In this document: positions 13,888 through 62,558 of the stretch, one piece after another | Layout: the number at the start of each line of letters is the position of its first letter | Numbering within the stretch: position 1 is the first letter of the stretch | The notes under the pieces: model-generated | What the model was told of the DNA's origin: nothing | What the model saw: the letters and a program-made list of their open reading frames with translations, nothing else | Databases searched by the model: none | Source of the DNA: Thuidium tamariscinum | Lineage: Eukaryota > Streptophyta > Bryopsida > Hypnales > Thuidiaceae | DNA length: 64,000 nucleotides | Direction of reading: 5' to 3' | Assembly (NCBI GenBank): GCA_947034885.2 | Contig: OX344755.2 | Coordinates: 7,442,501 to 7,506,500 of the forward strand | Translations under genes and position numbers: made by a program

Positions 13888-13891
13888 TATT

Positions 13892-13910
13892 GGGTGGTTG
13901 CAAGAAACAC
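13892..13910 (+). repeat. Left terminal inverted repeat of the large transposon
   Basis: GGGTGGTTGCAAGAAACAC, preceded by TATT at 13888-13891. It matches the right end over 19 bases without mismatch. The following 150-300 bases resemble the left end of the short element at 61814. Confidence 0.85.
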
Positions 13911-14912
13911 CGGTCCTATTTCCCATCATAATTGAAGTGACGTTCTTGTTTTTTGCAATAACTTCTGAAGATTCAATGTTTTGGAAATGAGAAAATTAGT
14001 GGACCTTTTTAACTTGACGTTTGTCAGATTCCTTATTTTCCAGAAAAAACCAAAAAACATTGACTAATTAATTTTGAATTTCCTTAATTTGTCACAAACT
14101 GGGGTTTAGGGTTTTTTACTACGTTTGCTGTATCCAAATCGAATGATGAGCATCTGCAATTTCTAAGGCCTATACGTACATCATAAAAGCATCTATCTAT
14201 GAAGATAGATCCTTTTTTTTTCCCGGGATGCCCTCCATACTCTTAAGAATAGGGGTTGCTATGTAGCCCGTTTCTAGGCAAAGGAAAAAGTCAAAACACA
14301 ATTTCCTTGGCTCACATGGCACAAGCATGAAGTTATCCAAAATGGCCATAATTAAATTTTATTTCGTGGATACTCTAATAATTTATTTTTAATTACTTCA
14401 TGGAATCCGCTATTTTTGGATCAGTTTTGTGACTCTACGCTACTATAGTACTGATCCATCGTCCATAGTACTCCGTAGTACTCCTGACAGGGCCCACCTC
14501 TGTTCAAAATTAGACACGTGCCCTACTGACAATCCTTAGTGTAGCCATCAATTTTTCTCATTAAGTCCATTTCAACCGCCATGCACTGAGCTACGCGATC
14601 GACGATCTATGGCGGCGTAGGGGCTTCTGCGATTGAATGGTCTTCTGAGGCTTAGGGTTGTAGCAAGACTTCCTCAATTTGTGATGAAGCATGCTCAGAA
14701 TTTGAGATTGGAGTTGCATGTACAGAATGTTAGAGTCAAAATCGGCTTCGGATTGTACTTTGTAGTCCATTAACGACTCCTGGAATTCATTGCTTATGTA
14801 GGAAGATAGAGAACCAAGCGAGCCGTCAAAACGACAACCTAGAATTGGGAGGCTAGGTCCGCGCACCAGGCAAGTTGCGGAAGACGCTGCGGTGCTAGAG
14901 CAATGAATCTGA
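13911..14912. other. Left subterminal region and presumed promoter of the transposase
   Basis: Noncoding except for a doubtful - strand frame at 14591-14965. It contains a cluster of AGTACT/TAGTAC words at about 14446-14486. These words recur at the right subterminal region and in introns of the element. The transposase reading frame is blocked by stops just upstream of 14913. Confidence 0.5.
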
Positions 14913-14965
14913 GCTCGAGAGAGGCAACGAGTTAGTTGGGCAAGGCGCGACTTTGTGAATTTCAT
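14591..14965 (-). CDS. Possible small divergent ORF, 124 residues
   Basis: An ATG-to-stop frame that runs away from the transposase and overlaps its open frame. The composition looks protein-like: a Ser/Arg-rich N-terminus, a central SLMDYKVQSEADF-type stretch, an amphipathic ILYMQLQSQILSMLHHKL segment and a basic tail. I recognise no family. It may be another passenger gene, a captured fragment, or chance in a less AT-rich stretch. Confidence 0.25.
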   Translation of the reverse strand: MKFTKSRLAQLTRCLSRAQIHCSSTAASSATCLVRGPSLPILGCRFDGSLGSLSSYISNEFQESLMDYKVQSEADFDSNILYMQLQSQILSMLHHKLRKSCYNPKPQKTIQSQKPLRRHRSSIA

Positions 14966-17900
14966 ACGAGAGGTGGTAGAAGCGTCCGACAGCGATTCAG
15001 CTGAAGATGATGATGGCGATCATGATCAGGCTGTGTACCGGAGTACGGTGAACAGACATGCAGACCGCATTTCTAGCAGCCTGATAGATTGCCTCATGCG
15101 ACTTGACAATGCTGAGCTTCGTGCTGCAGTTCTGCACAAGGTTTTCACGGATGTACACATTTGGCCCCTTCTTCTCGATTATTATCCAGTGCCCGGAGAT
15201 GCGAGGACAGAGCGGCAGATTCTCGTTAATATCCGCGCTGAGTTGCAGCGGACCAAAGTTCCTCATAACTCAGGTAAACTAGCAAGGAAACGTTCAATAC
15301 TGGAAGCTGTTGTTTTGGAGTTTGAAGCAGACTTCAGTAAGTTTCACAGAATTCTTGGAACGAAGAAATCAAATGTCATGGGAGCTGTCAAACGAGTTCG
15401 CACAGCTAACGTGGATAGGAATAGCAGGTTTGTCATTCCCGCAAGAAAGAAGCGTCAAGGAGGTATTGCTGACGATGTGAAGTTAGCAGTGAGTATTTCG
15501 TGGACTGAAGAAATCAGTGTGAGCCCTAACCGAAAAGACATTAGACAAAAGCGACTAGGGTGCAATTTGTATGACACCCACCCTGCACATCTTCTCATGG
15601 AGACTCAGGTTAAACCTCTTTTTCTTTTTCTTTCAGTTATGCTTCCTGTCGCTCAATGTAGGTGAACACAATTTGCTAGTCATGAAGTGCTTATCGGCAC
15701 ATATTCTTGTACATCGTATTACACTCTGTGTCTTCAAAGAGCACAGTACTTCTAGTACTCTCAAATAGTACATAATGCTTCATTGTACCTTGTACATCGT
15801 ATGAGTTCATATAATCCCACCATTATCATGTGGTATTGCTCCTTCTTACATAAATGGTGTCCTTCATATGTCCTCTTGAAACCGTCCTTTCATTCTGAAT
15901 TTCTTCTACTGCAGTTTCTCTACATTCTTGCTCTTGTAGTACCCCTAAGTAATGATGGTAGTAAGTAAGAAGGGCTACAGATAGTACTTGCATGTATTGT
16001 TATTAGGACATGCTTTAGTATTTCTAATCAAAATGTGGTCCTACTTGTAGAATAAAATTCAGGCTAAAATCACTAAAATTGAAGTCATAAAGTTCTCAAT
16101 CCTACGTTGAGTCTTAAGCCGTCCTACAGAATACTTAGATTGCCTTCGTTGATGCTTGTAGTTACTATAGAGGTCTTCCTAAGTATCTAGGGGACATTGA
16201 ACACTTCAAGTAGTACTTTTCCTAGTGCACTGAGAAATGAATAATACTTGTCTACTTGCTTTGAGTGGTACCTTCTAATACAGTGTGCTCCAAAATTTGT
16301 ATGTAGTCCTACACTTCGGGGAAGTTCAATACTTTCTGTACCTTCCTCAGTGTTACAATTCTATTCTAGGTAACTTATTACTAGAGAAGACAACTTTAAA
16401 CATTCTCACTATATGGTCAATTTCATTAAAATGGCGGTATTCCGAGTGCCATTTTGACAAATTCCAGTGCCACTTTGACATATTCCAATGCCATTTTGAC
16501 ATATTCTGTGTGCCACTTTGACAAATTTCAAGTGTCATTTTGACATTTTTGTGTACCATTTTGACATAGAGGTTTAATGGTAGAAGAAGAAAATGTGCCA
16601 TTTTAACGAAATGTTGTGCCATTTTAATGGAATATCATGCCATTTTATTGGAGTACCGCCATTTTAACGAAATTGACCATCTATCTTATATAGTACTCAT
16701 TAGTACTCATTATAGTACTTGGTATGAACTACTACAGTATTATTGACAGTGCTTCGTAGTACTGAGAAGCACATGTATAGTACTAAAGTGTGCTTTCTAG
16801 GTCTCATGTAGTACTACTTTAGCAATGTTGTCCACCGTACTTAAGAACTCATGTTCGGACTAATGGCAAGCACTTCCAAGTTGAATGATGTCTAGAATAC
16901 ACGTTTTTATTTATCTTCTCAAGTGCACACCTATATGTACAGACTGTAGTCACATGACATTCATGGCAGACCATTTTCATCATCATTCCAATGTAAGGAA
17001 CTTGTAGACTACATGTCCTACTTTTTGGTAGACAATATAGACCTTACCATGTTTGAATGCACTAACTCTCTTGTATACACTTGTGTAGAAACTACTATAT
17101 GACCGTTTCATGACCGCCCATCCCGACTGTGTCATTATGAACCGATCTTTCTACAGTCTACGACCGTTCTTTGTCATTAAGTGCAGGGAGCGTAACGTCT
17201 GCTGCTGCCGTTATCATGTGCAAGTGCTGTTTCTTTTGGAGGCGCTGAATGCTTTCCGTGATCCATTGACTGCGATACACTTCCTTGTCGAGTGTCGCTG
17301 CTAATGTGTGTTGTGCTCTGTCGTCCACGGTGGAGATTGTGCCCTTGGACATGCACGCTTCTCTGGAGTCACTATGATGTGGGAGTCAATGCTTTGTCCG
17401 AAGGATGAAGATTTTGAGTTTCATTGACCACAATGCTTGCTGGGGGAATGCAATTATGCATGTGGTGTTGCTTCCTTCAACGTGTGTCCACTGGAAATGG
17501 AGAACTCGCCAGCACTGAGCATATAGTGGAAGCAGTTTCAGTACGAGGTTGTTGGAGTGTCTACAGATGGAAGCCCGAAAAAACGAATAAAAGAGGTTTA
17601 GCGGACAACTACCTTCTCTGAGTTCATGGACTTCTTCAAGCCAACCGTTGAACGTTTCATCCGCCACAATTTTCAGGCTAGATGGCAATCAAATCAAGCT
17701 AAGTTACTCCAAGAATCTCTTCAGAGATTCACTGTAATGATTCACATTGACTTCGCAGAGAACTACACTTTCCAAGTTCAAAATGAAATTCAATCTTTGT
17801 ATTTCAACTCTACACAAGTTACGATTCTTGTCCAAGTTACATACTATGTTGCTTCAAGCTTACCAGATTTGGATGAAGACACGGACTTGATCAGGGAGAC

Positions 17901-19376
17901 CCATTACTACATCTCAGATGACCGCAGTCACGATACTTTATTTGTTCAGCATTGTCTCCTACAGCATTGGCGTTTCTTGAGAACACAGAAGTTTACAGCA
18001 CTCAACCACTGCGTCTTCAGCGATGGTTGTGCAAGCCAATTCAAAGGCTGCCGATCTCTTTACTTTGTTGCTAGGTATTACTGAACTTTGTGATTTTTTA
18101 ACTATATTCCCCTAGTTCTCATAAACAAATGCAATACTATGCTGAAGTACTTGCAGTTGCGGTATAGTCAGATACTCTTTCGTGGATAACTTCTAATTTT
18201 CAGTGGTCGTCATCGTCTCTTTCCTGACTGCCGCTGTTGAACCTCTCTTATTTGTCTTCTACAGATATCCCTTGCTCATTGCAGGTTGTAAAATGATGTA
18301 GAATTTCTATGGATTTGGACATGGGAAAGGAGAATGGAATGGCGTTGGCGCTGTTGTGAAAAGAGCTTTGCGTTCCGAACAACTTCTGAATCCACAACGG
18401 ACTCTGCAGAATGCTCGTCAGTGCGTCACTTTCCTGGATGGTGCTCTTGGTGGCCAAGTTCCGGGTAATCAAGATGGAGTCAGGTGTCGTTCTACACCTC
18501 CTTGTATTTCAATGATAATGTCCAATTCGTTGTTGCTCTAAGTATTCTCCTTTATGGATAGCATAGTATTACTTTGTAATGATTTGCAAGTTCTACTCTC
18601 TACTGTGAATGATAGACATCACACTTGCTTCGGCTCATGCACACTAACAATGGCTACTTTTTTCTTTCCGCAGGTCTTACCGGTACTTCCACTACGTTGA
18701 TGCTGTAGAAGTCGACCGTAGCAACCAACATTCTTGTGACCAATTTCTCGGGTCATCAAAATTGCACTCTGTTTTTGCTAACGACGAGAATGACCCCACT
18801 AAGCTCTTAGTCAGAGGATTGTCTTGCTTTTGTGGCCCATGTCTAGAAGAAAATTTCTGTCATTGCGAAAACCAAGAATATGTGGATGCTTGGAAAGCTG
18901 TCAAGATTGAAGGCCGCAATGTACAATTGGGACCTACTGAAGTAGCACTAGAGGAAGGTGAAGACCCTTGGGATTGGGACTATAGCGGAAAAAGTATGGG
19001 TGATTTGGTGCAGGTTGGTGACAATTTTGTTGTCCCAGCTGCTGCAGAGAACGATGAAGGGGTGCTATTCTACATTTTGTAGTGCCAGCGGCCTAAGAGA
19101 GTACTCATGGAAGCCTTGGTTTTCACATGGGGAGGGGAGTTTGAAGCAGAAGATTCTATACTGACAGGAACATACTACCAAAAATGGGGGCGCAAAGACA
19201 TGCACAATTATGTGTACCTGAGGAATTTACAAGTGGCCCACTTCAATGCCACTAGTGTCCTAGCCTGCAAATTCCAAATGACACCAAGGCAGTACCAAGT
19301 TAAAGGAGATCACTGAGTGTACACACTAGCAGATGAGACGGTTGATGTCATCAACAATGTACTTGATTCTGATTGA
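14913..19376 (+). pseudogene. Decayed DDD/E transposase, Sola-like
   Basis: Four exons fit in phase: 14913-15608, 17089-18074, 18265-18483 and 18674-19376, about 867 residues. An acidic Ser/Asp-rich start is followed by a Cys/His region (VCCCRYH, then scattered Cys pairs) and then the catalytic core. The core has HIDFAENY (Asp codon 17749), YYISDDRSHD (Asp codons 17917 and 17920), FSDGCASQFK (Asp codon 18022) and GFGHGKGEWNGVG (Glu codon 18332). A Cys-rich motif near 18826-18875 (CFCGPC..FCHC) sits in the C-terminal part. In-frame stops lie at 17302, 17425, 17524, 17599, 18299, 19080 and 19314; each is one C-to-T or G-to-A change from a sense codon. No good ATG starts exon 1: the first in-frame one is 15096, so a 5' exon may be missed. 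The enzyme would cut and join the GGGTG ends. Superfamily placement is from motif memory. Confidence 0.8.
16413..16680. mobile_element. MITE with internal minisatellite, 268 bp
   Basis: The ends ATGGTCAATTTCATTAAAAT and its inverted counterpart (one mismatch in the first 20) are flanked by CTAT on both sides, a 4-bp target duplication. The interior holds about eight diverged copies of a 19-30-base unit built on TGCCATTTTGACA. It lies in the first intron of the transposase gene. Its ends differ from those of the host transposon but resemble those of the element at 58511-58828. Confidence 0.75.
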
Positions 19377-19920
19377 ATTGATTTGCCTACCTTTCTTTTG
19401 AATGGAAGCCTGCATTCAAGAAATGAACCTACTCTGATGGCAGTACTTGTTGGTTGAGAGCTAGGACTACATACCTACAACTTTGTTAAGCTTAAAGTGA
19501 GTACAACAAAAAAAGTTTCAGTTAAGAAGTGAAGTGTACATTTAGGAATTCCTACCATGACATGGAAAATACAGACTACTCAGTGAAGGGAAACTGGAAG
19601 AACATTTGCTATTGGAGCAACCATGTCTTCAACTCCTGAACCCAACATGCATTTAAAGTTGAGCACTGAATATGCACAATGAATTGTGTATCATAACGTC
19701 TACATTTCAGTACATATGGTTTGTCCTCTATAATTCCATCAGATTACAGAATGTATAGGGTCTACAGAGGATGGCATTCTTTCATAGTTCAACACTTTCA
19801 AGCTGAAGACATTCACAATACATATTCAAAAATACGTGAGGTCAACTTGCCAATTGACATCCGCTTCTGATAATTCAGAAGATACTGCAATGTCTCTACA
19901 AGTAACACTCCTCTGCAAAG

Positions 19921-22900
19921 TCACACTCCTCTACAAAGATTACTATTGCAACAGCACGTGAATGGTGAACTACCCTCATCAAATTCGATGCCGTAGTCCC
20001 AAGTGAGCTCCTCCCCTGGATATATTAGTCGAGTAGTGAAAAAAGCCACCTGCCAAACATTTAGAATGCATCGTCATCAGTGGGGCACAACTAGAGTATA
20101 GACAGAATAGTTCAAGATTTCATTTTACATGAAATTGAGAAAGGTTAGTGAACTTGCATGATACAGAGCTGGACTCCTACGGTCTATCCACACTGGCATA
20201 TCCATCAGGTTCGCATCACTGCATCTGCAGCCAAAATGAAGATATTCTTTTAAAATTCCGCACTTTCAGTTACAACATAAATGAAACCACATGTAACCAG
20301 GTACCTTGTGTTAAATGATACATGTGATTTAACCACCGTGCCACGTTTGTGAATGTACTGGAATCTATGCAGAGCAAAGAGTTGTTGTCCTCCGCTGCCT
20401 CTGTCTCCTAATCAGCAGTGAGAGAAAGAGAGAACTTCATGTCATCCCTACGTCTCAACATCTCAGCATTTGTGACAACTTCACCGGCATATTCAAACAG
20501 AAAACGACTTGGCTTCAGATACTCCAATGTGCGAATGCCCCATCCTTTTTGCTTGTTCACGTGAAAAACCTACATTCATTGTCAAATACTAAGTTCATGT
20601 TAGTGATTCTCTGGAAAAGGAACTACTTACTAAGAAAAGCAAATGCCTAAACAAACTCACCTCCAACTTCGCTGATAGTCCTCTTTGGACTACCCTATTG
20701 GGACAAGTGGGTACACATGGGCATCTGTTGCTGCATTCTCTAATGTACTCCAAGCATGCGTGACCCTGGCACTCGCCATCTTGGGTCTCTAGGCAATCCG
20801 ATGGGCCACAAGAGTAGGTCAAAGTATTGGGGCACCTTTTCCGCCGCCTCAAGAACTACAAAGTCCCAAAAATAAGAATCCCTTTAGTCTAGCAGTATGT
20901 AGACAAATAATTAAGAAATGCACTTGCAATTATAATGCTCTGTAAAGAGTGAACAATTAAGAACGTACCTGTTTAATATAAGTTAGCTGTAGAAGGCCTG
21001 AGTTGAGGTAAAACCTATTCACTTCTCCCAACTCACAAATACATGTACCAGACTTATCGTTGCACCTGCCATTAGATTGGTCACTGTGTGTTGGCTGCCT
21101 TTGCCGCAGTGGAGGCAGTGCTTCCACCTTGACAGAGGAATGGATTCCTGGGTATCGTATATAAGTGTATGAGTCATCAAATGCCGGGAAATCGTTAGAG
21201 GCTTCAACCTCATGCACGATGATAGGAACATTTTCGAGACCTTTGGACATGTCAAAATGAAGGCCAACAGAAGCCCCCTGTCCAGAAGAGTTCATCATGT
21301 ACCAGCTAGCAGGTAACTAACGCAACAGAAAATGTGAAGCACTTAACAGGGTAACAAGACTACACTGCCTGCAAAGAAAGTCATTGAACTAATATACAAG
21401 GATGTTTACCTTCACATTCTTGTAGAAGAAATACATACCATGCACACCACTGTTGTATTAAAAAGGGGAATCATACAACCGGATTACAAAAGAAGATCCT
21501 CTTCCACAACGCATTAGGAACGTTGAAAAGGTGGGACTCCATGGCTAGTTGAGGCCAGCGCTTTCGCCTACGGCCCACAGCTTGAGAGTGGGCCATCAAC
21601 CACTCCATAGGCCTACAGTGACATACTGAATCATTCTACTGCCACATTCCAGGCAAAACCAGCAGTATTGGTTGCGGCCCACACGGGATCTGGTGCTGCT
21701 GAGGCTTCCTAAGCAATATCTTTTGACTACAAAAAACAGGTGGGAATATACTACTGCAAAGATAATACGCTTCACAGAAAGCCTTGAATTAGTCAAAACA
21801 GTCTGCACTGTGAAGGGCACTCACTTCTTTACACCCACCTTACTCTTCTTTGATCCTATCGGAACTGTAGCTTGTGTTGAGGCACTGTCTCTTGTAGTTG
21901 TTCCTGGAGGCTGTCGACCGCGCAAGACTCTCGAAGGAGACTCTTCCAGCGTGACCGGGTCGGACATGGCTTCCTTTCCTACGTAGTAGTGGAATTGAAG
22001 TCAGATATTAGAGGATAGAAGCTTAAAGAAAATAATAGGCAGTACAGGTGAACTCCACATGCATTACAATAGGAAACTTGCAAAATAAGTATTGGTCGAA
22101 GTACTCGCGTAGTATCCCAACTAATACTTCTATAAGATACACTATACTACCAAAGTATGTCATAGAACCCCTAGTAGTATCTTCCTGGAACTCGAGAAGT
22201 AACCTAGTACCCACAGAGTACCCCAAGTAGTACTATATTAGTACTGTAGTACTTGTAGGAGTCGTCATCATACTATAGAAGAGGTGGCAAAGGACCGAGG
22301 TCAGTCCTGGGGTAGTACTACACATAGAGAATGCGTCCAACGTTCCTGAACAATAGCAATACATGAAGCAAGATGTAGCACAATCATCATACAATGAAAG
22401 AAGATTGTTCTTGTCAGGTTGTGAACTTACTTGCAGGGGATTCCTTGTGTGGACCTTAGTTTGGGCTGCCAGCGCTTGGCACAGTATTGACGTCGTTACT
22501 ATCATCACCGTCCACGTGTTGTGGGAGTGATTGAGAAGGGTTGTCGATGTTGCCGGTCTTCTTAGATCGCGTAGTTGGACGTTGAAATGTCATAGAGTAA
22601 GGGTCATCTCCATCGACACCTCTCTCATGAGTTCCGCCCTTCTCAATGTGATCGGCACCCACATTTGTCTCAACAGTTTGTGGCTCTACAGTCTGCACAA
22701 CATGTGCACTCACAATTCCAAAGAATGAAATATACATTGCAAGTGTGAAGAACTGGCATGTACAATGGAGCAAACTGATAATGAGAAGTACACCAACAAT
22801 ATTTCGGAGATTTTGTATATTTCTGTAAGGTAACGTGAAGCACGACTGACTTGGGAGCCACTCACCTCAACAGCAATGACGTCGTCTTTATCTTGGACAA

Positions 22901-24672
22901 GCTCTAGTAAATCAAAACCATGACCACGTTGTCGAGGTTCTTGTTGCAATAGTGGATCGTCAGGCTCCATTCCGAAGTCCATGTCTTCTAGATCTGCAGT
23001 CAAATTCCGCAAGAGAAGAACAAGTGGCGACAACCTACTCTTCTCTTGTGCTTCCACATTAGGGGGGGCCCTATTCCTGCACAAGGTCAATGCTCTGCGA
23101 ACTTGTAGTGCGAGTGGGTGATTGCATGAAACACTTGTACTGCTGTGTTGCATCATGTTTTGTGGTGACTAGTTTTTTAGCCATAACTTTTGTTTTTTAG
23201 CTCCAAATGATTCAAATTTTTTTAAATGGGTACTCATAACTATTATACATCATTCAAAATTTTTGAGGATTTAAAAAAAATATTTTACTATTTTAAAATA
23301 GCCCCCGATTTTTTGTCACATATTCCAATTTAGGGGTTTTTAGTACTATTTAGAACCCAAAAAAATGAATTTTGAGCTGAAATTTTGAAAGGATGTTTTC
23401 TTAGTATAATTATAAGTTATCTCAAAAGGAATTTCAAAAATAGTCATTTTCATGTGGTGTAGAAGTCTACAAAGAGATCTTTTTTCTGCTTGCTTTTTGA
23501 AACGTATAAAACTTTTTTTTGGTGATTTTCTTGGTCAAGCCTTATCACCAAAAAGTCTTCTCAAATGGCCAATTTTCATTTTTATTTTAAAAAATGTTTT
23601 TTACTTTTTATTAATTAAAACATTGAAGTATGTATTTTCTTCACCGAAATTCTATGTGTTCTATGTCCAAAATTCTAGTGAAGAAAAATACAACTTTAAC
23701 ATTTTAATTTGTAAAAAATAGAAAAAAAAAATTTAATGAAATCTAAAAAATTTCCATTTGAGAAGACTTTTTGGTGATAAGGCTTGACCAAGAAAATCAC
23801 CAAAAGAATGTTTTATATGTTTCAAAAAGCAAGTAGAAAGAAGGTCTCTTTGTGGACTTCTACACATCAAAAAAATGACTATTTTTAAAATTCCTTTGGA
23901 GATAAGCTATAAGTCTACTAATAGAATATCCACTCAAATATTCAGCTCAAAATTCGTTTTTTTGGGTTCTAAATAGTACTAAAAATCCCACAATGTCAAA
24001 GTGTGACAAATTAACAAAATTGAATTTTAAATATCAAATGATTTTTTTTTATTTGTAAAAAATAAGGATAATAATTTGAATCAAGATATCTAGGAAGCCT
24101 TTTTTTTATTTTGGGCACTTAGTTTTTTATTCAAAAGTTAGAGCCATCTTAAAGCGGTCAATCCAAAAAAACACAACAAATAGTACAAGTGTTTCGTGCA
24201 TTCACTCGAGCCTCCTCTGCTGCGGATGCAGCAATTAGAGATGTGGTTGGCTTAGTTGCTTGCAACTCTGTAGACGGTGTTGGAACCTGTGATCCAGGAA
24301 GGTCCTCGGTAGCATCAATCTTAGTTTCTATAACCAGTGGACTGACGACAGCTGTCGGAAAGACAAACTCCTTCACCCGTTCTCCACCCGAGCACTTAGA
24401 GAAGGGGCTTTCAGAGGCTGACATGCTTGGAGCACCTTCTCCGATGTCCACTGAAGCTGCACAGACCATACAAAGTAGTATGAGAAAGAATGAAAGCGGA
24501 TGCTACAAGTATTCTTTATAAGAGCTCAGTGTGTGCAACTTGAAAGCACCAAATAAGAATTCATAGGAGATATACTAAGAACGAAATGGGACATCAGCAA
24601 AGCAAGGAAAGAAGGTTTAGAATTTCTCACAGTACCTGCAGGTGTCTTTAGTGGCACTATTGCTTGCACCAT
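19921..24672 (-). pseudogene. SUVR-like histone-lysine methyltransferase (pre-SET/SET/post-SET), transposon-borne, decayed
   Basis: Exons read on the - strand: 24672-24636, 24456-22866 (broken by the foldback element 23115-24206), 22692-22431, 21978-21825, 21726-21488, 21449-21410, 21316-20969, 20855-20661, 20569-20322, 20224-20158 and 20049-19921. The C-terminal half matches plant SUVR H3K9 methyltransferases from memory. It has a DMSKGLENVPI lead-in, a Cys-rich pre-SET with HACLEYIREC and CPNRVVQRGL, then the SET motifs KGWGIRTLEYL, EYAGEVVTNAE, ARWLNH and ELTWDYG. It ends with the post-SET Cys cluster CCCNSNLC. The N-terminal half is Ser/Thr/Glu-rich. In-frame stops: TAA 22458-22456, TAG 21638-21636, and TAG 20410-20408 inside SET, where relatives have Trp. 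The join between exons 21726-21488 and 21449-21410 does not hold frame, so one boundary is wrong or an indel is present. The intron 20157-20050 is GC-AG. An intact copy would methylate histone H3 in the nucleus. Confidence 0.82.
23115..24206. mobile_element. Foldback element related to the large transposon, 1.09 kb
   Basis: Inverted ends TGGGTGATTGCATGAAACAC and AGTGAATGCACGAAACAC are both followed by TTGTACT. CGAG flanks both sides (23111-23114 and 24207-24210). Long inner arms pair: 23459-23565 with 23754-23868 at high identity. There is no coding capacity. The ends resemble those of the surrounding 18-kb element, so the same transposase may have moved it. It interrupts the SET-protein gene, so it arrived after that gene was on the element. 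Confidence 0.8.
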
Positions 24673-27159
24673 GGGGATAGCACCACAATCACTTGCTTCC
24701 TTAACGTCACCTGCTGGTATAGAGAGAAGTTTCTCGTACTCGCCGAACCCCCAACTGTCGTACTATTGTTTAGGAACAAGCCCACACATGAGGTGTGCAC
24801 ATGTGACATTGCTTTTGGACCACTGTGTTGCACACCAAGGATGATAAACATGTTGGCAAGAGCAAAGGATTATGTCCCAAATCAGAAAGCCATTACAACA
24901 AATAAAGTCTGAGGGGAGGGCAACTTTTCTATTCTACAGAACCATTACGTCCTCGTCGTTGCATAATGGTAGCGGCCTCATCATCACATTGTCTTGTCCT
25001 GCCGAGAGCTCCTTCAAATAAGTTTTTAGCGCGCAGAGACGACTATTGGTCGCTTTCTTGGTATTCTTGGCTCGACAGAGGGACTGCTCACATGTTGACT
25101 TCGTTGTTGCCAAAGCAGAGAGATTCTTGACGTTCGAGTAGAGCATCCTAAAAATAGGGCCGAATCCAGGTAGGGCCACGGCAGTAGCAATTTCTTCCTC
25201 TCCAGCAATGACATTGAATTGTTGTCCAGCCTCCAGCAACGATGACTTTATTTGTTCCACGACTTCAAAGGAAGCCTGCCATTGCAATGCCGATTGTGCC
25301 ACCTTTGATTGCAGGACCTCAATGTCTTCATCAACGCATTTCAGTTTACTCTCTAAAGTGGCCATGAGGCTTTCCACTTCGTTCTTTCTAGATAGACAGT
25401 TCCATGAATTTGTTAGAGGTCAATGTCAGATGGTACATAGCATGCAGTAGTTTAAAACTTCACAGAGAAGAAATGCACTGACACAGAGTACCTACAAGAG
25501 ACAAAGGAAGTCCCAACGATTGAATTACTAGAATTAGAACACATTTGTACTAATTAGTAATGGTCAGGAATACTGAAACTGCATAGTAGTACTATAAGAG
25601 TAAAAGTGAGGACTTGTGCTAGAGTAGTCCTCCTCAGTAGTACTTGTAGTACTCTTCTTTATCAGCAATAGTAGTGTATAGTACTCATAGTACACGTGAA
25701 CACAATAAGAGTTAAGGATATGAGAGAATGTGAACACGACTAGTACTATGACCAAACAGAAGGGCAATACATGGTCCATGAAGTTCATAACTCTACAGCT
25801 TGTACATATGAAACTGATGTGCGAAAAAGGAGGTTACAAAAAAAGAGTTGTGATACTGTACTATATCACTAACAAGACCATAGAAGTGTTTATGTATACC
25901 TCAAAAGTGAGAAGAACTAGAAATTGAGTACTAATGCAATGGCTAGTACCATAGTTAGCAGAGCATATGAAAACTCTGAAGACAAAAAATAAAATTGAAT
26001 TGCTAGTACTATTCTGAATTGTACATACTGACGCTTAGTGGAGGTATAGTGCAACTAAAGAGTTTCTAATACTGTGGGGAGGACTACAGAAGAGGAGCTC
26101 TCATACAGAGTGAAGTAGGTATGAGAGAAAAAGAACTGTCCCAAGCAGTATTCACGTATTATTGACATTCATCACTGTAAAGAGAAGAGGAATGATAGCA
26201 ATTGGAGTACTACAATACAGACCTAGGACAGCAGAGGAAAGCACAAATAGCAAGAGTTAGTATTGTAGCTGCCATTGTTGGCAAATGTACATTCCGACCC
26301 CCAAAATGTGACATAAAATAGTGTTTGGAAAACTGAGCCAAAGAAGGTACAGAAGTGTGGAGAAAATGATGGAAATACCTTATTTTGGTGACCTCTGGGT
26401 CGTGCCGTGGGAAATCAATCAGGGGAGGACGTTTTTTCAGATTGTCCGTGGATGCACCCTCGAGAGCGACATCAGACTGCATATCCCCCAGTGCTGACCT
26501 ATCAGGTACAATGTCGATGTAGTCATTGAATCCCTCAGAGTCGTAGACGTCAATTATCGACACATTCCGCAAATTCGCCAACGCTTGAATCCACGCCTTC
26601 ACCCGTTGGGAGTAGAAATGTCGCTGCCTAGCATTTGTCTCACTTGCAAATTGCGCCCAGTTCACACTCTTGTGTTGAACCTTATCTAAGACAATCCCTA
26701 TGGCAAATTCCTTTGCCACATGAGCAAGTGCATGACTCTTTTGGTAGCAGCGACAGTATAAACTCTCAACATCAAGCTTCATTTCTTTGGATAGCTTCTC
26801 CGCCAACAAAAATCCATTTCTGCTTTTCTCTTTACCAAACACAGCCTCCACTTCCTTTAGAGTTATATCCTTCCCTATCTTCAATCTGTGTGTGTTAATT
26901 CCTTCATGGAGAAGATAGAAGCGGGTTGCAAATACCTCTGCAGTCATGGCAGGGGGGGGGGATGTGGGCGCTTCATTCCCACCCTTGGATTTAAGTGATC
27001 ACAACCAGGCTCTTGTTTACAAAACTACTCCTACGGGTGTCTAAGCGTCAAACCCACTGTGCCTTCCAAGCAATGGATCTTTTGCTATTCTAATTGTCCT
27101 AACGCGTGAGTTGGTTACTCCTAACTACCTTAGGTGGGTACTCGTTTCATTCTCTTGTT

Positions 27160-27545
27160 CTACTTCTCACTACTTCTACGTTATGTGTTTCGTTCTCTTG
27201 TCCTACTCTACATATTTGCGTTAGACTACTTGACGTGTTTGCGTTAATCTATTCTACGTAATCGTATTCCTTTGGTCTACTCTACATGATCGTATTCTTT
27301 TAATCTATTTCTACATATTTGTATTTGTCTTAGTTCAGTCTACGTCTTCTTCTACTCTATGTATTTGTATTTGTCTTGGTCTAATCTACGTCTTCTTCTA
27401 CTCTATGTATTCTTCTACTCTACGTATTTGCATTTATCTTGGTCTAATTTACATCTTCTTCTACTCTACGTATTTGCATTTGTCTTGGTCTAATCTACGT
27501 CTTCTTCTACTCTATGTATTCTTCTACTCTATGTTCGTGTGTTCA
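27160..27545. repeat. Minisatellite inside the LTR-like fossil
   Basis: Several copies of a roughly 45-60-base unit built from TACTCTACGTATTTGCATTT, GTCTTGGTCTAATCTACGT and CTTCTTCTACTC follow one another with small length changes. The + strand is pyrimidine-rich. No protein is implied. Confidence 0.65.
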
Positions 27546-28486
27546 TCATTTTCTTTCTCTTTATGGTTGTCTTCCTATTCGTGATTGCTAATCACCGGAC
27601 CTTAATCTTACTTGGGGTGTTACCCTTTTCCTACTAACTAAGTCCCTATTGCATCAATTAATTCAAATCAAAGGAAGGTTTAGAGGCCCACCTCCGTTCC
27701 GTACGTCCGGTCCTCTTCACTCCACGCCACGTCCATCATTGCCATGTCTTGGTCCCGGCTCTTTTAATTATCCCCTTCTGGGTGTTTCTTACAAGTAGGT
27801 CTTTTTTGCAACTACTTCCCCACTCTACTAGTGTCTACTATTTCCTAGCTCAACTAATTTCTATACTATCCCCTAAACCAACTAGTTTCTAAACTACCCC
27901 CTAACCCAACTAATTTCTATTTTTTCCCCTTTAACTATCTCTAGTCTAATTTCCCTTTCTACTATCCCTAATCTAATTTTTTCCCCTTTTTTCCTAGACT
28001 CAAGCCCTTGGATCCAAAGCCCCGACCCGACCCCTGGACCCCAAAGCCCCGACCCAACCCCTGCTGCGGTGCTGGCGCAGTGCCCGGCTGCAGTACTGGC
28101 GCGGTACCCGACTGGTGCCCGGTTGTAGTACTGGCGGGGGGCCCGGCTGGCGCTGGCTGAGGCTCCAATTGGGGGGCTTCGGTTGGTGCTGGTTGCAATG
28201 GTTTCTTACAAAATCTACCCTTAATTGGGCTAATATTTATGCAAGGTGCTTTTCAAAGTACAACCACATTCCACTCTACCTAAGGAGCCTCCTAATTGTC
28301 ACTTTGTTGGATACTGAACGTTGCAATAGTGCCAAACATGTTGGACACTAAACATTGGTTCTACCCCAAGGGAGTTTGCTTTTGACACCCCGCTAAGACT
28401 TGGAGGGGTCAAAGCTCCGCCGTGGAGGTGACCTCTTTGACACTTGACTAAGACCTTTTGTTTCTCTAGATACTTAAGAAGCCAAG

Positions 28487-28633
28487 GCTTCGCCGTCCCC
28501 TATGGGACTAGATTAACCCCGTGAACAAGAGAAGAGGGGGAAGAGAGGGAGCATATAATGCTTAGAGTACTACTAGTCAAAGCTTCGCCGTCCCCTATGG
28601 GACTAGATTAACCCCGTGAACAAGAGAAGAGGG
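28487..28633. repeat. Short direct duplication inside the LTR-like fossil
   Basis: About 52 bases starting GCTTCGCCGTCCCCTATGGG occur at 28487-28538 and again at 28582-28633 with almost no change. The near identity means the duplication is young or present in the source LTR. Confidence 0.7.
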
Positions 28634-30881
28634 AGAGGAGAGTGAACACAAGGTGCAACATACTCTCAAAGTCACCTCCCTAGTAATCCCTCGGTTTCTC
28701 CCAAGTTCTCTCCCACAACACCTCTCAATAGTTTCCACAATACAAGAGTGAACCAAGATCAAATTACATAAGTCTCCACCAACTTGGGGGGGTCTCAAGT
28801 CCCCAAGTACAAACCGCACTTACCAAGGGTGTAAAAACCCCAAAAGACCATCAAAGGCTCCTTTGGCATCAAAAGCCAAAAGAAATCCGACATAACCCGG
28901 GCCCAATAGTCCTCTTCCCTTAAATGGTGAGGAGTGAGAAAGAGAGAGAATGAGAGGAGAATGCCGCCCCTTTTATATCCAAAAGGGAGCAACCCCCCCC
29001 CCTTTAATCTACTAAGAATAACTAGATGAGGGAATTTAGGAGGTCCGTACATGTTCACCCATCCCAAATCTAATTATCCACCTAAAATCTACACAATTTG
29101 AATTGAGAAATTCAAATCTTACCTAACCTTACAAGAACTTGCAAAACCACCTAATTTACCTTCCCCAAAATCTACAAGTTCTCACATGGGAGAAGTTCCC
29201 ATGTGTTCCCACCTACTTAATTTGAAATTACTTACACCAAGCACTTGGAGCCACCTCCACTAACTTTTTGAGGTGGTACTTGCTCTCGCATGTGTCCGGA
29301 GTTCCCCATGCGTTCCCTATACGTTCCCTACGGCCATTGAGGCCCAAACTCCCTAAAAAAGCATTGGGGGGCCTTAAACCCCCATTTCTCCTCCATGTGC
29401 TGTGCCCAAAAAGCTAACTTTTGGAATTTAGCTCCGAATGGCAAACGGATTGCGCCATTGGGTCCGGAAGGCCATAATTAGTCTAATGGAAACCTTACAC
29501 CCCTAAAACTATGTCCAAATTCTCAAGGAATCTTAGTGTAAGCTGGGGTCAAAGTTGGGATAAATTCCCAACTTTTGGAGTTTGGCAATTTTGGACCCCA
29601 AACCTTCACCAATCTTCTAAGTAGATGGAAGGGGGTAGGAATAGACCCAAGATAGGCTTCTTTCCAATGTCGTATGGCCCCGGTAAGCCGGTCAACTGCA
29701 GCTTCCGTCATTTAATTTGTCAGTTGGGGAGGAATGTCGCCGATTCGGGATTTTCCAACTATCGATTTGTCTTGAAACTTGGGGAAGCGCTCCGTTGGTG
29801 TGAGACCGCCTCGACGGATTTTTAGTGGGATTTTACCGCACTTTGGGATATTCTTTCGAATTCCCACCCAAAGTCCACCGCGGTTGACCGTCTGGGAAAA
29901 TATCCAAACCATGTCGGGAAATTCCCAAACTTTAGAGGGGACCACCCATGGGATCCCCCCACTTGGATGCAAATCTGCATCCCCACTGCGTGCTCCTAGA
30001 ATTAGGAAATCGCCCGGTACCTGCATTTCAAGGTTGGTATTTCGCTCGTATTTTCTTTGATGCTATGGGGAGTGGGGGATTCCTCCTAGATCCCCCTACG
30101 AGGACTTCCTAGCCTAGACAGGGCCTTTTTAGGCTTCTTACCCTAATCCTACACATTTCTATCAGTTTGGCATCTATTTAGCTAAGACAAGGCCCGTTTT
30201 GGATGTAAACTATCCTAAATCCCACCTAATGACCAATTGGCATATTGATATGTGTAATGCCAATACCGTTTTAGTGCCCTTTTGTGGGTTTTATAAGCCT
30301 AATTACGCCTTAGTTTATGTAGGAATCCGAAAAAAGAACCCGTGAGTCCCCGGTGACGAATCGGGGACTCACAGGGGACGCTTGTCATCTGCACTTAACA
30401 CGGCCAATTGCTTGAGGCATTCCCACTCCGTGAACTCCCGCTCTACCTTTGCTTGCTTCTTCTGTGGACGTTGTTGCTGGGCTTTCTGTGCAGTGTTGTA
30501 GACGATGTCCTCACTCTCAAGCGAACCACCAGAACCCCCGTGTTCTACAGGAAGTGACGTTCCAGAGGATGAGCTGCCGCCACCAAAAACCTATGCTGCC
30601 TTCCTCTTGCGTGTGGAAGGCTCCCTTGCTCTTGAGCTCCTCGTTCCTCCTTCCAAGGTAGGTAGGGGTGTCATGTCAGCCCTCTGTTTTCTTTTGTCTG
30701 TGGAGGCAGTTCTGGAAGGAGGTGGCATGGATGATGGCCCCTTTCTTCCACTTTCCTCGACTGCATTAGCCCTTCTCCCTTCCGTAGGGGACGCATGTCC
30801 TGCATTAGTCGCTTCTCCAGCACTATTGTTCGATCCATGTGAAGTTGCCTTCGGACGTATAGTTTTCTTCATTTTTGCCAT

Positions 30882-32048
30882 TTCTTGAATGCAGGACACG
30901 TCCGGAATTCAGAGAACATAGAAATTGAGCGTGGGCATTTCAGATTGCACCCTAAACTCTGAAATCTAATGCAGCAAAACCGTATCTTGGAAAATACTAC
31001 AAAACAGTGGAGGACTAATTACCTCATACACGAAATGACAATGCAAATGTCCTAGCATGTCAGGTACAATTCATTTTTTGCCTAACCCTATTGCATTGAA
31101 CTTACAAAGTAGACACATCAAAGAGGCAACAGCAAATTGCACGCTCTTAGTGCGACATACTTGACTACTTAAGCAAAAGAAGCAGGACGTTGCTTAGGGG
31201 AGGCAAATGCACCAAGGACGCGAGTACTTACCGCTTCAGAGGACAAGTCACAGCAGCCGCCACCGTCAACCCTTGCCCGTCACGAAGTAGCGCTCCTTCG
31301 CAGTCCGCAGCTTCTGTCCTCCCAGATCGGTGGTCCAATGCTCCGAACCCGCTTCCAAAACCACCTCCCGCAATTCCTACCCAAAATTCTGAACCCTAAG
31401 AGCACATCTGCTGTAAGCAATGGCCGAAACGGGTTGTGAGTAGGCGTCCGAAAGTACGCATTTCAAGAGAGTCATCAAACATTCCAAGACTCCAAATCCA
31501 AACTTTGAAGGCGCAACAACTTCAAAGAAAAACACAAGTTTGAGTTCTGGTATTTCGTAGTGTCTACGAGCATCCTTGCTTCCCAAAAAAAGGAGTAGGA
31601 AATGCACTTTGTACCTCAATTTTGAAGCTCCAGCACAATTCACCATCGCCAATTTCGACCTTCCCACACCTGCATCGCGCACTCAAAATTTCGCCAACGC
31701 CAACAAAGAGAGAGCGCCATTTTTTGAAAATTCATCCACAACAGTTCAACTACAAATTCATCCATCTATGAATCCATTAATGACCACAAGTTGGCAAGGT
31801 GGACCCTAATGACTTTCATCCTACATCGAATGACAAGTTAGGATGTACAGCTGATGTAAGCACTTAATGTGCATCGTTGGACGCCCACAATCAATGCTCT
31901 GCCACGATCGGTTATGAACACACGTCAGTCCAGAGAGACATTTGCAGTTTGATCAACGGACCAAAACACTTGCCCGTAGTACTCATAGTATTCATAGTAC
32001 TAGGCAGCAGAAATCCAATTTTTCCAAAAAGGCTATAGAAAACAGCTA
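30882..32048. other. Right subterminal region of the large transposon
   Basis: No convincing gene. It should hold the promoter of the - strand coiled-coil gene. Frames on both strands at 31190-31809 overlap each other and have no domain. AGTACT-type words cluster at about 31976-32001, mirroring the left subterminal cluster. Confidence 0.45.
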
Positions 32049-32067
32049 GTGTTTCTTGCAACCACCC
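32049..32067 (-). repeat. Right terminal inverted repeat of the large transposon
   Basis: GTGTTTCTTGCAACCACCC, the exact reverse complement of the left end, followed by TATT at 32068-32071. Confidence 0.85.
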
Positions 32068-32071
32068 TATT

Positions 32072-33582: not shown

Positions 33583-35705
33583 TGTCGTACGCGTAGTCTA
33601 GCAGAAAGTACCTTTATCACACCCAAACGTGATAATATGACACGGAATATCGTCCCAAGAGATTCCAGACGTTACTATTAGTTGCGGTTTCCAATTTCTA
33701 GGCTTTTCGGCTCAAAAACCCCAAGTTATTACTTTCTTCCGGAACACGACCTTGTGTCCGAATTCCAATCCGGATCCGTCACTCCACTCTTTCCGGATCC
33801 GTTTCGGATCCGTCACCTCTATCCGGATCCGTCTCTCCACTCTTTTCGGATCCGAATTACACCTTTCCCAGATCCGTCTCAATTCGGATTCCGATTCCGT
33901 CACTCAATAATCGGTTTTAGATACCCCTATTTTATCCTCAGGGGGTCCTCTCTTGATCTTTAGAGGGGTAGGGACTTACCACTCGTAAACCTCACGTTCT
34001 CTCCTCTCAAACAAAACACACAAAGACACCCAAATATATCCGATGTTGCATTAGGGGCGGATCCGGATCCTCACAACTTCCCGGATGGCTCTGAGCCAAT
34101 CCGGTTAGCAGGTCACTCAGGACTACTTTCACTCACCCTTACTACAACGACAGATCCAAAGACATCGAAGCCCAAAAGGACGTACTTCCCTAGATCGGTG
34201 GATTGACTTAGTGGTTGGCAAACCTTCTGGTGGACGGAAACTTTCCTCTTGGCAGCTGCTTAGCTCCGCACGGATCCACCCTTGTGGTTCCGGAACCTCC
34301 TCCACGCTCACACTGGATCGCCGTTCTAGCGAATTAAAGGCTCCACGCACAAACGCACAACTCTAAATCCAAGTTCTAAGAAGCTGGTCACTCAGTTCAG
34401 ACCTCAGTTGCTTAAGAATCTGGATTCCTCCTCACCCGTCCCTCTTGCCTCTCAACACCCCAACAAACACACCAAGAGAGACTCAAACATAAGTCAGAGC
34501 TGGAATGTCCATTTGACGGCTCAAATTAAAGAAGGAAATGAAATACAATGGAATATGCACTAGGAAGGAATGACAGGCCAACTAACTTGCCTGCCCCTTA
34601 AAAGCCCAAATCAAAACAAAAGTCAACGCCCTAACAAGCCAAAAAGGCACCATGGAAATCAGGGCAACCAATCAGTGAACACCCCAAGATATCCGGAACA
34701 TTTGGTCACAACCAACTGTCCCTAAAAATTCAGATCTCCTAAAAATCCGAAATCCGGAATCCGGATCCACATTCTGAAAATCAGATTCAGATTCTAGAAA
34801 TAAATTTAAACTAAGTGGAGATAGCCTTTAAGCTACCTCTCCCAATGCGCCATCTTCAAACTGCTCCCACTTTGACTCCCTGGTGTCATCACAAAAGCCT
34901 TCGTGAACTGGAGTAGTCTTGATTGCCGCTTGGGTCCAAATCTCCCGTTCCGGGTCAATTTCCGGATTCCGGATCTCTTAATCCAGATCCATTCCGGATT
35001 GATTATGGATCCTTTAACCTATCCGGAACATTCCAGATCACAATCATTCCCGAATCTGGATCCTCAATATTTACGGGTCCATTCCGGATCCATTCCGGGT
35101 CCATTCCGGATCCATTTCGGATCCATTTCGGATCCGGATCCTCAATATTTACGGAACATTTCTGTTCCTAAATATTTCCGGATCCGGATCCTCAATATTT
35201 ACGGAACATTTCTGTTCCTAAATATTTACGGATCCGGATCCTCAATATTTACGGAACATTTCTGTTCCTAAATATTTCCGGATCCAGTGCCGATAGTACC
35301 AAAATACTTTTGGACTACTATCTGGGTTCTGGTTTCCGGTAAGGACAAAAAATGTAATCTTCCTCCTTAACCATTTTGTCTCAATAAAGAGACCCTATGG
35401 TTTGCTAATCCATATTTAGAACATTCACAGCCGGAATTCCTAAATTTTTGGAATCCCTAAATTTCCGGATCCCTAGAAATCCGGAATCCGGAATCCGGAT
35501 TGTTTTCGGATTGTTTTCGGATTGTTTCTGGATTTTCCAGAATATGGATCATAGTTCCGGAATTTCTAGTTTCGGAACCCCTTACACAATAAAATGCTCT
35601 AATTTGTCCTACTCCTATGTTTAAACTTCAAAAAAATCAAAGAAACGGATTATTCTAGCAAGATATAATATAACACTATATTTTAGACATTTTCGGATTG
35701 TGACA
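33583..35705. mobile_element. GGATCC-rich solo-LTR-like fossil, 2.1 kb
   Basis: It starts TGTCGTACGC and ends TTGTGACA, with the TGTC..GACA ends usual for LTRs. It is flanked by GCAAA (33578-33582) and GTAAA (35706-35710), a 5-bp duplication with one difference. Two dense fields of TCCGGATCC words lie at about 33770-34060 and 34720-35580. Repeated Phe-Arg-Ile and Pro-Asp-Pro frames in these fields are translations of the repeat, not genes. No retroelement protein is visible. Confidence 0.5.
35130..35285. repeat. Tandem repeat, 50-bp unit, about three copies
   Basis: Units begin GGATCCGGATCCTCAATATT at 35130, 35180 and 35230, with a decayed start of a fourth at 35280. Each continues through ACGGAACATTTCTGTTCC. 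The copies are almost identical. Confidence 0.85.
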
Positions 35706-41399: not shown

Positions 41400-41885
41400 T
41401 TGAATTGAATGGTGGTAATGTTGTAATAAAAAATATGAATCCTATAATTTTTTTTTTCCAATTTAAAAAAAATTGAGTTAAATAAACGATTTCAAAGTTT
41501 ATTTTAGAATAGAGAATCCATAACTTCCCACAAATTACAACTTGTCATAATTTTCATCCCATTAATCAAAATAGAATTATTCAAAGCTTTTTGTGTATAA
41601 AAATTTAGAAAATCAATTTCAAATTTTAGTTTTAGGAAAAAGGGATTTTTCATATTTGCCTAGACCACCCAAGTTGCGAAAGAAATAACATATCATTCAA
41701 TAACTTTTGTACCATGTAGTCAAAAGTCAAAAAATTATAGAGCCTTAAAAGATATTCCTTGTCTTCATGTTGTGTGAAGATTTCAGAGAAGAATAATAAA
41801 ACCTCAATTTATAGTGAGATGCCCAAAAAGTCTATATTGCTAAAAAAAATACAACTTGGTCTATTAGGGGTTAGGACAAAAGCCC
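41400..41885 (+). repeat. Dispersed AT-rich repeat, copy B
   Basis: It shares the ordered landmarks of copy A, from CATAACTTCCCACAAATTAC through the ACCACCCAAGTTGC and GAGATGCCCAAAAAG blocks to TATTAGGGGTTAGGAC. It is in the same orientation as copies A and C. Confidence 0.6.
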
Positions 41886-43352: not shown

Positions 43353-43616
43353 GCGGCAGCAATAACATGATCCCAGCTGGAAGCCACGCGTCATGCACCA
43401 ACATGGTCATCTCCTCGTTCCAGGTGGAGTGAGAGACTTCTTGCTCAATTGCCTCTCAAATGCGTCGTCGACCTTCAGCTCGGTGCATTTTTCTTCACAG
43501 AATTGCAATCTCTCACTGGTGGGTCTGATTCCCATCGCGTCGAAATCGAGAAAATATTCATTCAGGGCTTGAGAAAATAGATTTCACTTAGGGTTTCATA
43601 CACAGTTCGCAATTTT

Positions 43617-57239: not shown

Positions 57240-57860
57240 CATATTTTAGTATGTTTTTTTTTTAAATTTACTATTTTTTACTTCAATTTTCTAATTTGTC
57301 ATACTTTAGGTTATAAATTTTTTGTATTGTAATAAATATGAGATGGTGATTTTCACTTCAAAATTTAGACACCAAATTTCTATTATAAAGTTACATAAAG
57401 GAATAGTAGATATTCTCTAGAAAATAAAAATAATATCATTGTCCTCTACATAGATGCAAATAATGCTTTGTTGTGCCCACATTCTTTGAAAATTTCAAAC
57501 TAAACCTCCTCATAACTTTTGACTCACTAATCCAAATGGAATGATTCAAAGATTCCTGCATACACAAAGTTTTAAATAAAAATTTTCATATTTCATTTTT
57601 TCAAAAAATTATTTTTAAAGAAGTTTTTTTATCTACCCAGGCTGCCTAGAGATCAAAGAAAATCACATATCATGCAATAACTTTTTGACTATATAGTCAA
57701 ATTTTATGAAACTTGTTGGACCTTAAAGCTACTCCTTGGGCACATGTTGTGTGAAAATTTTAAAGAAAAAGAATAAGAACTCCATCCACAATGAGCTGCC
57801 CGAAATCGCTATGTTGCCAAAAAACACAGTTTGGTCCTTTAGGGGTTAATATAATCATAG
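57240..57860 (+). repeat. Dispersed AT-rich repeat, copy C
   Basis: Contains CTCATAACTTTTGACTCACT, the CTACCCAGGCTGCC block, the CTTAAAGCTACTCC block, AATGAGCTGCCC and a final TTTAGGGGTTAA, in the same order as copies A and B. It is closest to copy A. Confidence 0.65.
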
Positions 57861-62554: not shown

Positions 62555-62558
62555 TTAT

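What the first reader, a model, noticed from the sequence alone, without database searches (positions are those of the whole stretch)
13892..32067. An 18-kb plant DNA transposon that carries its own SUVR-type H3K9 methyltransferase gene
Seen: exact 19-bp inverted ends with a TATT duplication enclose a DDD/E transposase and, on the other strand, an 11-exon gene with pre-SET, SET and post-SET motifs in correct order. Known: plant SUVR/SUVH proteins write H3K9 methylation, which silences transposons. Inference: the element may have used the enzyme to shape chromatin at its own copies, at competing elements, or at host silencing genes. I know of no described plant DNA transposon with such cargo.
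Basis: partly seen in the sequence, partly recalled or inferred. Interest (0 to 1): 0.93.

Follow-up and report, generated by a model that had tools for sequence, protein, structure and literature searches.

The report
Dead plant transposon carrying chromatin-enzyme gene
An 18-kb, now broken, cut-and-paste transposon, probably from a plant, carries beside its transposase a long gene for a histone-methylating (SET) protein, and the same short DNA word is scattered through the non-coding parts of both genes, which suggests that the chromatin gene had long been part of the element.

Summary
Exact 19-bp inverted ends (13892-13910, 32049-32067) with a TATT duplication enclose a transposase-like gene (+, 14913-19376) and a multi-exon gene on the other strand ending in a SET domain (Pfam E=1.7e-14; closest solved structures EHMT1 and SUV39H2, E~1e-29). 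Both genes are dead: 7 internal stops in the transposase; at least 4 stops, an inferred frameshift and a nested MITE in the SET gene. 'SUVR-type' could not be tested.

New evidence: the palindrome AGTACT occurs 31 times in 7.9 kb of the element's non-coding DNA, once in 5.8 kb of exons and 7 times in 45.8 kb of flanks, with similar density in transposase introns (11/1860 bp) and SET-gene introns (13/2730 bp). I noticed it by eye before testing. It argues that the SET gene was a long-term resident rather than a host gene overrun or freshly captured, and resembles the layout of VANC-target motifs in Arabidopsis VANDAL transposons.

The claim of no precedent is too strong: SET cargo is reported in oomycete HarbingerS and MuDR transposons. 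TSD, ends and size fit Sola; the transposase matched no profile. No plant genome was searchable, so other copies, host orthologues and phylogeny remain untested.

The parts
13888..13891 (.). target-site duplication TATT, left copy
13892..13910 (+). left terminal inverted repeat, 19 bp
   Evidence: exact inverted match to 32049-32067
13892..14147 (.). left end, 71% identical to the left end of the small element at 61814-62556
   Evidence: self-BLAST 13891-14147 against 61813-62069, E 8.7e-27
14913..19376 (+). transposase-like gene: exons 14913-15608, 17089-18074, 18265-18483, 18674-19376; one frame, 7 internal stops; true start not found
   Evidence: motifs SDGCASQFK and GHGKG recognised from memory; no profile match
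15609..17088 (+). transposase intron 1, 10 AGTACT sites
   Evidence: shuffle mean 0.95, maximum 5 in 200 shuffles
19921..21316 (-). SET-domain part of cargo gene: exons 20969-21316, 20661-20855, 20322-20569, 20158-20224, 19921-20049; one internal stop; one GC donor
21839..22692 (-). cargo gene exons 21839-21978 and 22431-22692 (one stop) with an AGTACT-rich intron between them
   Evidence: 5 sites in 21979-22430, shuffle mean 0.5, maximum 3 in 200
22866..24456 (-). cargo gene exon split by the nested MITE: 24208-24456 and 22866-23111; frameshift inferred because the open frames of the two halves do not agree
23116..24207 (.). nested foldback MITE with related ends; flanks GAGT / GAGC (3 of 4 bp alike)
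24636..25387 (-). cargo gene exon: coiled-coil-like stretch and RING/PHD-like zinc finger, two in-frame stops
   Evidence: zf-RING_2 E 0.0098 and, for the first part, Val_tRNA-synt_C arm E 0.00024, both below their curated cut-offs
25388..26378 (-). cargo gene intron, 8 AGTACT sites
   Evidence: shuffle mean 0.85, maximum 4 in 200 shuffles
26379..26947 (-). cargo gene exon beginning with an ATG, open throughout
26948..30369 (.). tandem-repeat-rich, G+C-richer stretch, either a long intron, upstream DNA or a later insertion; unresolved
30370..30882 (-). basic, low-complexity reading frame with one internal stop; possible first exon of the cargo gene
32049..32067 (-). right terminal inverted repeat, 19 bp
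32068..32071 (.). target-site duplication TATT, right copy

Best explanation
This is one dead copy of a two-gene DNA transposon, Sola-like in TSD length, size and ends. The transposase and a finger-plus-SET histone methyltransferase gene lie tail to tail, 544 bp apart, and point away from the two termini inward. The SET gene was an established gene of the element: its introns, the transposase introns and both termini share the same dense palindrome, AGTACT, which exons and flanking DNA hardly have. Most likely mechanism (inferred): a factor encoded by the element, the SET protein or the transposase, bound these sites and so marked the element's own DNA; the SET protein then methylated histones there, changing its own silencing or expression state. 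Shown: ends, TSD, both reading frames, their decay, the motif distribution. Inferred: residence in the family, enzymatic activity, who binds the motif, direction of the effect.
For: Exact ends and TSD. Both genes inside, exon phases agreeing. SET domain 1.7e-14 with catalytic motifs kept. AGTACT: 31 in 7852 bp of non-coding element DNA against 1 in 5809 bp of exons (Fisher 6.7e-7) and 7 in 45824 bp of flanks (6e-20); transposase introns 11 in 1860 bp against cargo introns 13 in 2730 bp, p=0.68. AGTACTA is the best-scoring 7-mer against the flanks in each intron set taken separately, and AGTACT the best 6-mer in the termini. No significant difference in decay: 7 stops in 868 codons against 4 in about 1068, p=0.24. 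Published parallels: VANC21 binds a short motif in introns, intergenic and terminal non-coding parts of its own transposon (PMC5735166, passages); SUVR5, a finger-SET protein, prefers a palindromic octamer, TACTAGTA (PMC3469426, passages).
Against: Only one copy was seen; no homologue of either gene was found in the collections searched, though these are viral and prokaryotic. The motif was noticed by eye before it was tested, and the nested MITE and 26948-30370 were left out of the main count; these hold 2 and 3 further AGTACT. By other scorings AGTACT is not first everywhere: second to AATGGC in transposase introns and to the overlapping GTACTA in cargo introns, and the best 8-mer of the transposase introns against the flanks is AAAATGGC. 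The motif is not the SUVR5 site (TACTAGTA: 0 in the element, 1 in the flanks) and VANC sites are few. No DNA-binding domain was identified in the cargo protein. The pair of motifs near the right end, also present in the small element at 61814-62556, would equally suit transposase binding.
Confidence: 0.58

Rival explanations
1. Pack-type capture: this one copy picked up a complete host SET gene by chance; the gene has no role for the element.
For: Gene capture by plant transposons is established (general knowledge; review PMC13317346, abstract start in the listing). No second copy with the SET gene was seen; the multi-exon structure resembles a host gene.
Against: The motif that marks the transposase introns and termini is as dense in the SET-gene introns, which a recently captured host gene should not show; the gene takes up most of the element as an apparently complete unit.
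Confidence: 0.2
2. Host gene overrun: the two ends belong to separate small elements that happen to lie on either side of a host gene and an old transposase.
For: Small elements with related ends occur in the window (23116-24207, 61814-62556, perhaps 57136-57909), and the left 256 bp match one of them at 71%.
Against: The two outer ends match each other exactly over 19 bp, whereas the other end-like sites found differ from them at 2 or more of 19 bases, and they carry an identical 4-bp duplication; the shared motif is found from left end to right end.
Confidence: 0.07
3. The motif is a binding site of the transposase or of a host factor needed for transposition or expression; the SET protein is a real resident but acts elsewhere, for instance on competing elements or on host silencing genes.
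For: Paired AGTACT sites 66 and 84 bp from the right end here, and 50 and 70 bp from the right end of the small element at 61814-62556 (positions).
Against: 24 of the 37 sites in the element lie in introns, most of them far from the ends.
Confidence: 0.25
4. The SET protein limited the element's own activity, or aimed its insertion at silent chromatin, rather than helping it to escape silencing.
For: The closest solved relatives are named H3K9 methyltransferases, whose mark is usually repressive (established knowledge).
Against: Nothing in the sequence gives the direction of the effect.
Confidence: 0.25

Closest known systems
HarbingerS and SET-bearing MuDR transposons of Phytophthora (Kojima and Jurka 2014, as cited in PMC12730594, passage; originals not seen)
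   Same: DNA transposons that carry a SET histone methyltransferase gene
   Different: Harbinger and MuDR superfamilies in oomycetes; here a 4-bp TSD element, probably in a plant, with a finger before the SET domain. Whether they have a motif array is unknown to me
Sola superfamily (PMC10741241, passage)
   Same: 4-bp TSD, TIR within 11-1124 bp, can exceed 15 kb, present in moss and seemingly not common in flowering plants; Sola elements can carry cargo (Fanzor1, PMC3627910, passage)
   Different: No SET cargo in the passages seen; relationship of the transposase was not testable
VANDAL/VANC anti-silencing system of Arabidopsis (PMC5735166 passages; PMC10398659 abstract)
   Same: Element-encoded chromatin-acting protein plus a short motif concentrated in introns and other non-coding parts of the element
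   Different: MuDR-type element; VANC motifs differ and often sit in tandem repeats; the passages report loss of methylation, not a SET enzyme
SUVR5 of Arabidopsis (PMC3469426 passages)
   Same: Zinc finger plus C-terminal SET; palindromic octamer target
   Different: Host gene, three C2H2 fingers, target TACTAGTA rather than an AGTACT palindrome
SETMAR/Metnase (a chain listed; otherwise recalled)
   Same: SET domain joined to transposon history
   Different: A mariner transposase fused to a host SET gene in primates, not a transposon cargo gene
TET/JBP-bearing fungal DNA transposons (PMC12730594, passages)
   Same: DNA transposon with an epigenetic enzyme
   Different: DNA-base dioxygenase, not histone methyltransferase; fungi

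Membership tests
Sola | 4-bp target-site duplication | tested here: met
   TATT/TATT
Sola | TIR 11-1124 bp; mostly 2-9 kb, some over 15 kb | tested here: met
   19 bp, 18176 bp; ranges from PMC10741241, passage
Sola | DDD transposase | tested here: inconclusive
   HID and SDG motifs present; third acid unclear; no profile match; structure model unusable, mean pLDDT 32.8
Sola | transposase groups with known Sola transposases | not testable with these tools
   no Sola sequence at hand; founding paper PMC2727372 not held
HarbingerS | Harbinger transposase and 3-bp TSD (recalled) | tested here: not met
   3-bp reading is not a duplication (ATT against TAT); no Pfam transposase match
SUV39/EHMT-like SET methyltransferase | SET domain with GWG, NHxC, ELxxDY and post-SET cysteines (motif names recalled) | tested here: met
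   one in-frame stop in this copy
SUV39/EHMT-like SET methyltransferase | full nine-cysteine pre-SET (recalled) | tested here: inconclusive
   C-x3-C-x-C-x3-C half present (positions); Pfam Pre-SET not listed
SUVR | SET domain groups with plant SUVR; WIYLD domain in several members, no SRA (recalled) | tested here: inconclusive
   no WIYLD or SRA Pfam match; no SUVR sequence for a tree
VANDAL (MuDR) | MuDR-type element with 7-12 bp TSD | tested here: not met
   4-bp TSD; range from PMC10741241, passage
VANDAL/VANC | cargo protein related to VANC | not tested
   no VANC sequence at hand
VANDAL/VANC | works like: motif concentrated in non-coding element DNA | tested here: met
   binding itself untested

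The most novel reading that the evidence does not exclude
A transposon with its own addressed histone-methylation system: the SET protein it encodes is brought to about thirty AGTACT palindromes spread through its introns and ends, so that the element writes histone marks on its own copies and spares the host. This would be a histone-methyltransferase counterpart of VANC, evolved in a different transposon superfamily.
Probability: 0.25. Interest if true: 0.88.

Novelty: new variant of a known kind. Interest (0 to 1): 0.62.

Why it matters
Selfish DNA and host chromatin are in an arms race, yet only a few element-encoded chromatin factors are known. A plant-type element that carried a histone methyltransferase together with a motif array in its own non-coding DNA would suggest that sequence-addressed control of silencing arose more than once, and would give a testable writer-plus-address pair.

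Tried and rejected
Searches for relatives gave nothing: in viral contigs the transposase core (no pattern match), the SET part (5 pattern matches, none a relative), transposase first exon, cargo first exon and transposase C-terminus (3, 4 and 1 pattern matches, none a relative); in genome contigs the transposase core (34 pattern matches, none a relative); the 19-bp end in viral contigs and a back-translated transposase motif in both. These collections are viral and prokaryotic and most queries reach close relatives only, so absence means little. One scan of viral contigs was left unused; metagenome contigs had no scan to give.

A structure of transposase exon 2 was predicted without an alignment; the model was unusable and no fold search was run. 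Identifying the host from neighbouring genes failed beyond LEA_2. The cargo N-terminal part matched nothing convincing. SUVR5 and VANC target motifs were counted: TACTAGTA 0 in the element and 1 in the flanks; YAGTATTAY (one strand) 2 and 1; AGTTGTCC 1 and 1; AGTTGTAC 0 and 0. The repeat copies near 1.4, 41.5 and 57.5 kb were looked at for the same ends; only 57136-57909 has end-like sequences, without a matching TSD.

Literature: seven full-text searches showed no plant DNA transposon with a SET gene in the rows listed (20 of 525, 13 of 13, 20 of 28, 20 of 21, 4 of 4, 20 of 29 and 20 of 24 papers: titles and starts of abstracts). I read only passages of PMC12730594, PMC10741241, PMC9033089, PMC3627910, PMC5735166, PMC13317346 and PMC3469426 and the abstract of PMC10398659; the library lacks most subscription journals, and I saw no Repbase Reports. 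PMC13317346, a 2026 review of gene capture in plants, holds 'SET', 'histone' and 'methyltransferase' as whole words 0 times.
Full report
What is there. The two outer ends are an exact 19-bp inverted pair at 13892-13910 and 32049-32067 with TATT on both sides. Markov copies of the window hold on average 23 exact inverted 14-mer pairs more than 1 kb apart (60 copies), which by my extrapolation is about 0.04 for 19 bp; the identical 4-bp duplication lowers this further. The real window has other exact inverted pairs of 16 bp or more (list cut at 20 rows), some of them from dispersed repeats and one of 17 bp (19409/30880) inside the element. Other elements in the window have related ends: the foldback MITE at 23116-24207 inside the large element, the 743-bp element at 61814-62556 and possibly one at 57136-57909. 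The first 256 bp of the large element are 71% identical to the left end of 61814-62556, so the ends belong to a family that was active in this genome.

Transposase. Four exons on the + strand (14913-15608, 17089-18074, 18265-18483, 18674-19376) join in one frame of 868 codons with 7 internal stops. Motifs such as HIDF, SDGCASQFK and GHGKG look to me, from memory, like a DDD/E transposase. No Pfam family matched the whole reading, no NCBIfam family matched 370 residues of it, and 249 residues found only a lysozyme at E 0.75 among solved structures; a structure model without relatives was unusable. The transposase identity therefore rests on motifs and on its place between the ends.

Cargo gene. 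On the - strand, ten exons from 26947 to 19921 have GT-AG borders with one GC-AG intron, and agreeing phase at 8 steps; the step across the MITE and the step from 21839 to 21316 could not be tested. I chose the sites to keep the frame, so the agreement is not independent. The order is an ATG-led N-terminal region, a coiled-coil-like stretch, a RING/PHD-like finger (weak: zf-RING_2 E 0.0098, under the curated cut-off), linker, and SET (Pfam 1.7e-14). Of 82 solved sequences matched (60 shown), the best are EHMT1 and SUV39H2 (about 1e-29); SUVH6 is weaker (6.5e-19). GWG, NHIC, ELTWDY and the post-SET cysteines are present. Damage: two stops in the finger exon, one in exon 22431-22692, one in the SET domain, and a MITE with an inferred frameshift in one exon. 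A further 170-residue frame at 30.4-30.9 kb with one stop may be the first exon; a 3.4-kb repeat-rich stretch separates it. The stretch around 21.5 kb was not resolved. Stops per codon do not differ significantly between the two genes (7 of 868 against 4 of about 1068, p=0.24), as expected if both decayed together.

The shared motif. AGTACT occurs 44 times in the window, 37 of them in the element. By my count of the contexts, 30 of the 37 extend to TAGTACT or AGTACTA, and 10 of the 37 are full TAGTACTA (1 in the flanks). In a count that leaves out the nested MITE and 26948-30370 (which hold 2 and 3), there are 31 in 7852 bp of non-coding element DNA, 1 in 5809 bp of exons and 7 in 45824 bp of flanks (Fisher 6.7e-7 and 6e-20). 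Transposase introns have 11 in 1860 bp, cargo introns 13 in 2730 bp (p=0.68). Scored against the flanks, AGTACTA is the best 7-mer in each of the two intron sets taken separately; among 6-mers the overlapping GTACTA leads in the cargo introns, and among 8-mers AAAATGGC leads in the transposase introns. Scored against a first-order expectation, AGTACT is the best 6-mer in the termini and second in each intron set, behind AATGGC (part of a tandem repeat) and GTACTA. Dinucleotide shuffles of the three main introns give means of 0.95, 0.5 and 0.85 against 10, 5 and 8 observed; none of 200 shuffles each reaches them. The host gene block at 43.5-55.5 kb has one AGTACT. I saw the motif while reading, before testing. 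Two of the seven flank copies lie in the element at 61814-62556, near its right end, as two do here.

Reading. The simplest account of a motif spread at similar density over introns of both genes and the termini, but nearly absent from exons and surroundings, is that both genes evolved inside one element for a long time. This speaks against a host gene overrun by a transposon and against a fresh capture. The layout resembles VANDAL elements, where VANC21 binds a short motif in introns, intergenic and terminal non-coding DNA of its own elements (PMC5735166, passages). SUVR5 shows that a plant finger-SET protein can be addressed by a palindromic octamer (PMC3469426, passages), though its site TACTAGTA does not occur in the element. 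Which protein bound AGTACT here, and whether the SET enzyme promoted or relieved silencing, is not known.

Known and new. SET genes in DNA transposons are reported for HarbingerS and MuDR families of Phytophthora (PMC12730594, passage; the original Repbase Reports were not seen). For plants I found no report in the rows listed by seven full-text searches, within a library that lacks most subscription journals. TSD length, TIR length and size agree with Sola as described in PMC10741241 (passage), which also notes Sola in the moss Physcomitrella and that it seems not common in flowering plants; PMC9033089 lists Physcomitrella Sola1 (passage). Sequence membership could not be tested. I therefore call it a new variant of a known kind.

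Limits. No plant genome was available, so other copies, the empty site, host orthologues and a tree are missing. The organism is unknown; a LEA_2 gene at 43.6 kb is consistent with a plant.

Mended: the wording on how many motif sites are full TAGTACTA, the scorings in which AGTACT is not first, the VANDAL membership row, and the number of papers listed.

Noticed in passing
23116-24207: Foldback MITE with ends related to the large element, long 82% complementary arms, inserted in an exon of the cargo gene with a near-perfect 4-bp duplication (GAGT/GAGC).
   Followed up: partly
61814-62556: 743-bp element whose left 256 bp are 71% identical to the left end of the large element; two AGTACT sites near its right end; TTAT duplication if two end bases are lost.
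   Followed up: partly
57136-57909, with related stretches at 1420-1798 and 41505-41873: Another dispersed repeat family; of the three only the 57-kb copy shows ends like GGGTGAAAGCAAGAAACAC, without a matching TSD.
   Followed up: partly
16438-16667: 21-bp tandem repeat (TGCCATTTTGACA-like) in transposase intron 1, with a 34-bp inverted repeat at 16410-16443 and 16650-16683.
   Followed up: no
26948-30369: G+C-richer, tandem-repeat-rich 3.4 kb inside the cargo gene region; possible nested insertion with no clear termini.
   Followed up: partly
43581-44210: LEA_2 family gene (Pfam 2.1e-7), consistent with a plant host.
   Followed up: partly
35125-35285: 50-bp tandem repeat, 3.2 copies, 97% matches, with CGGATCC units nearby.
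   Followed up: no
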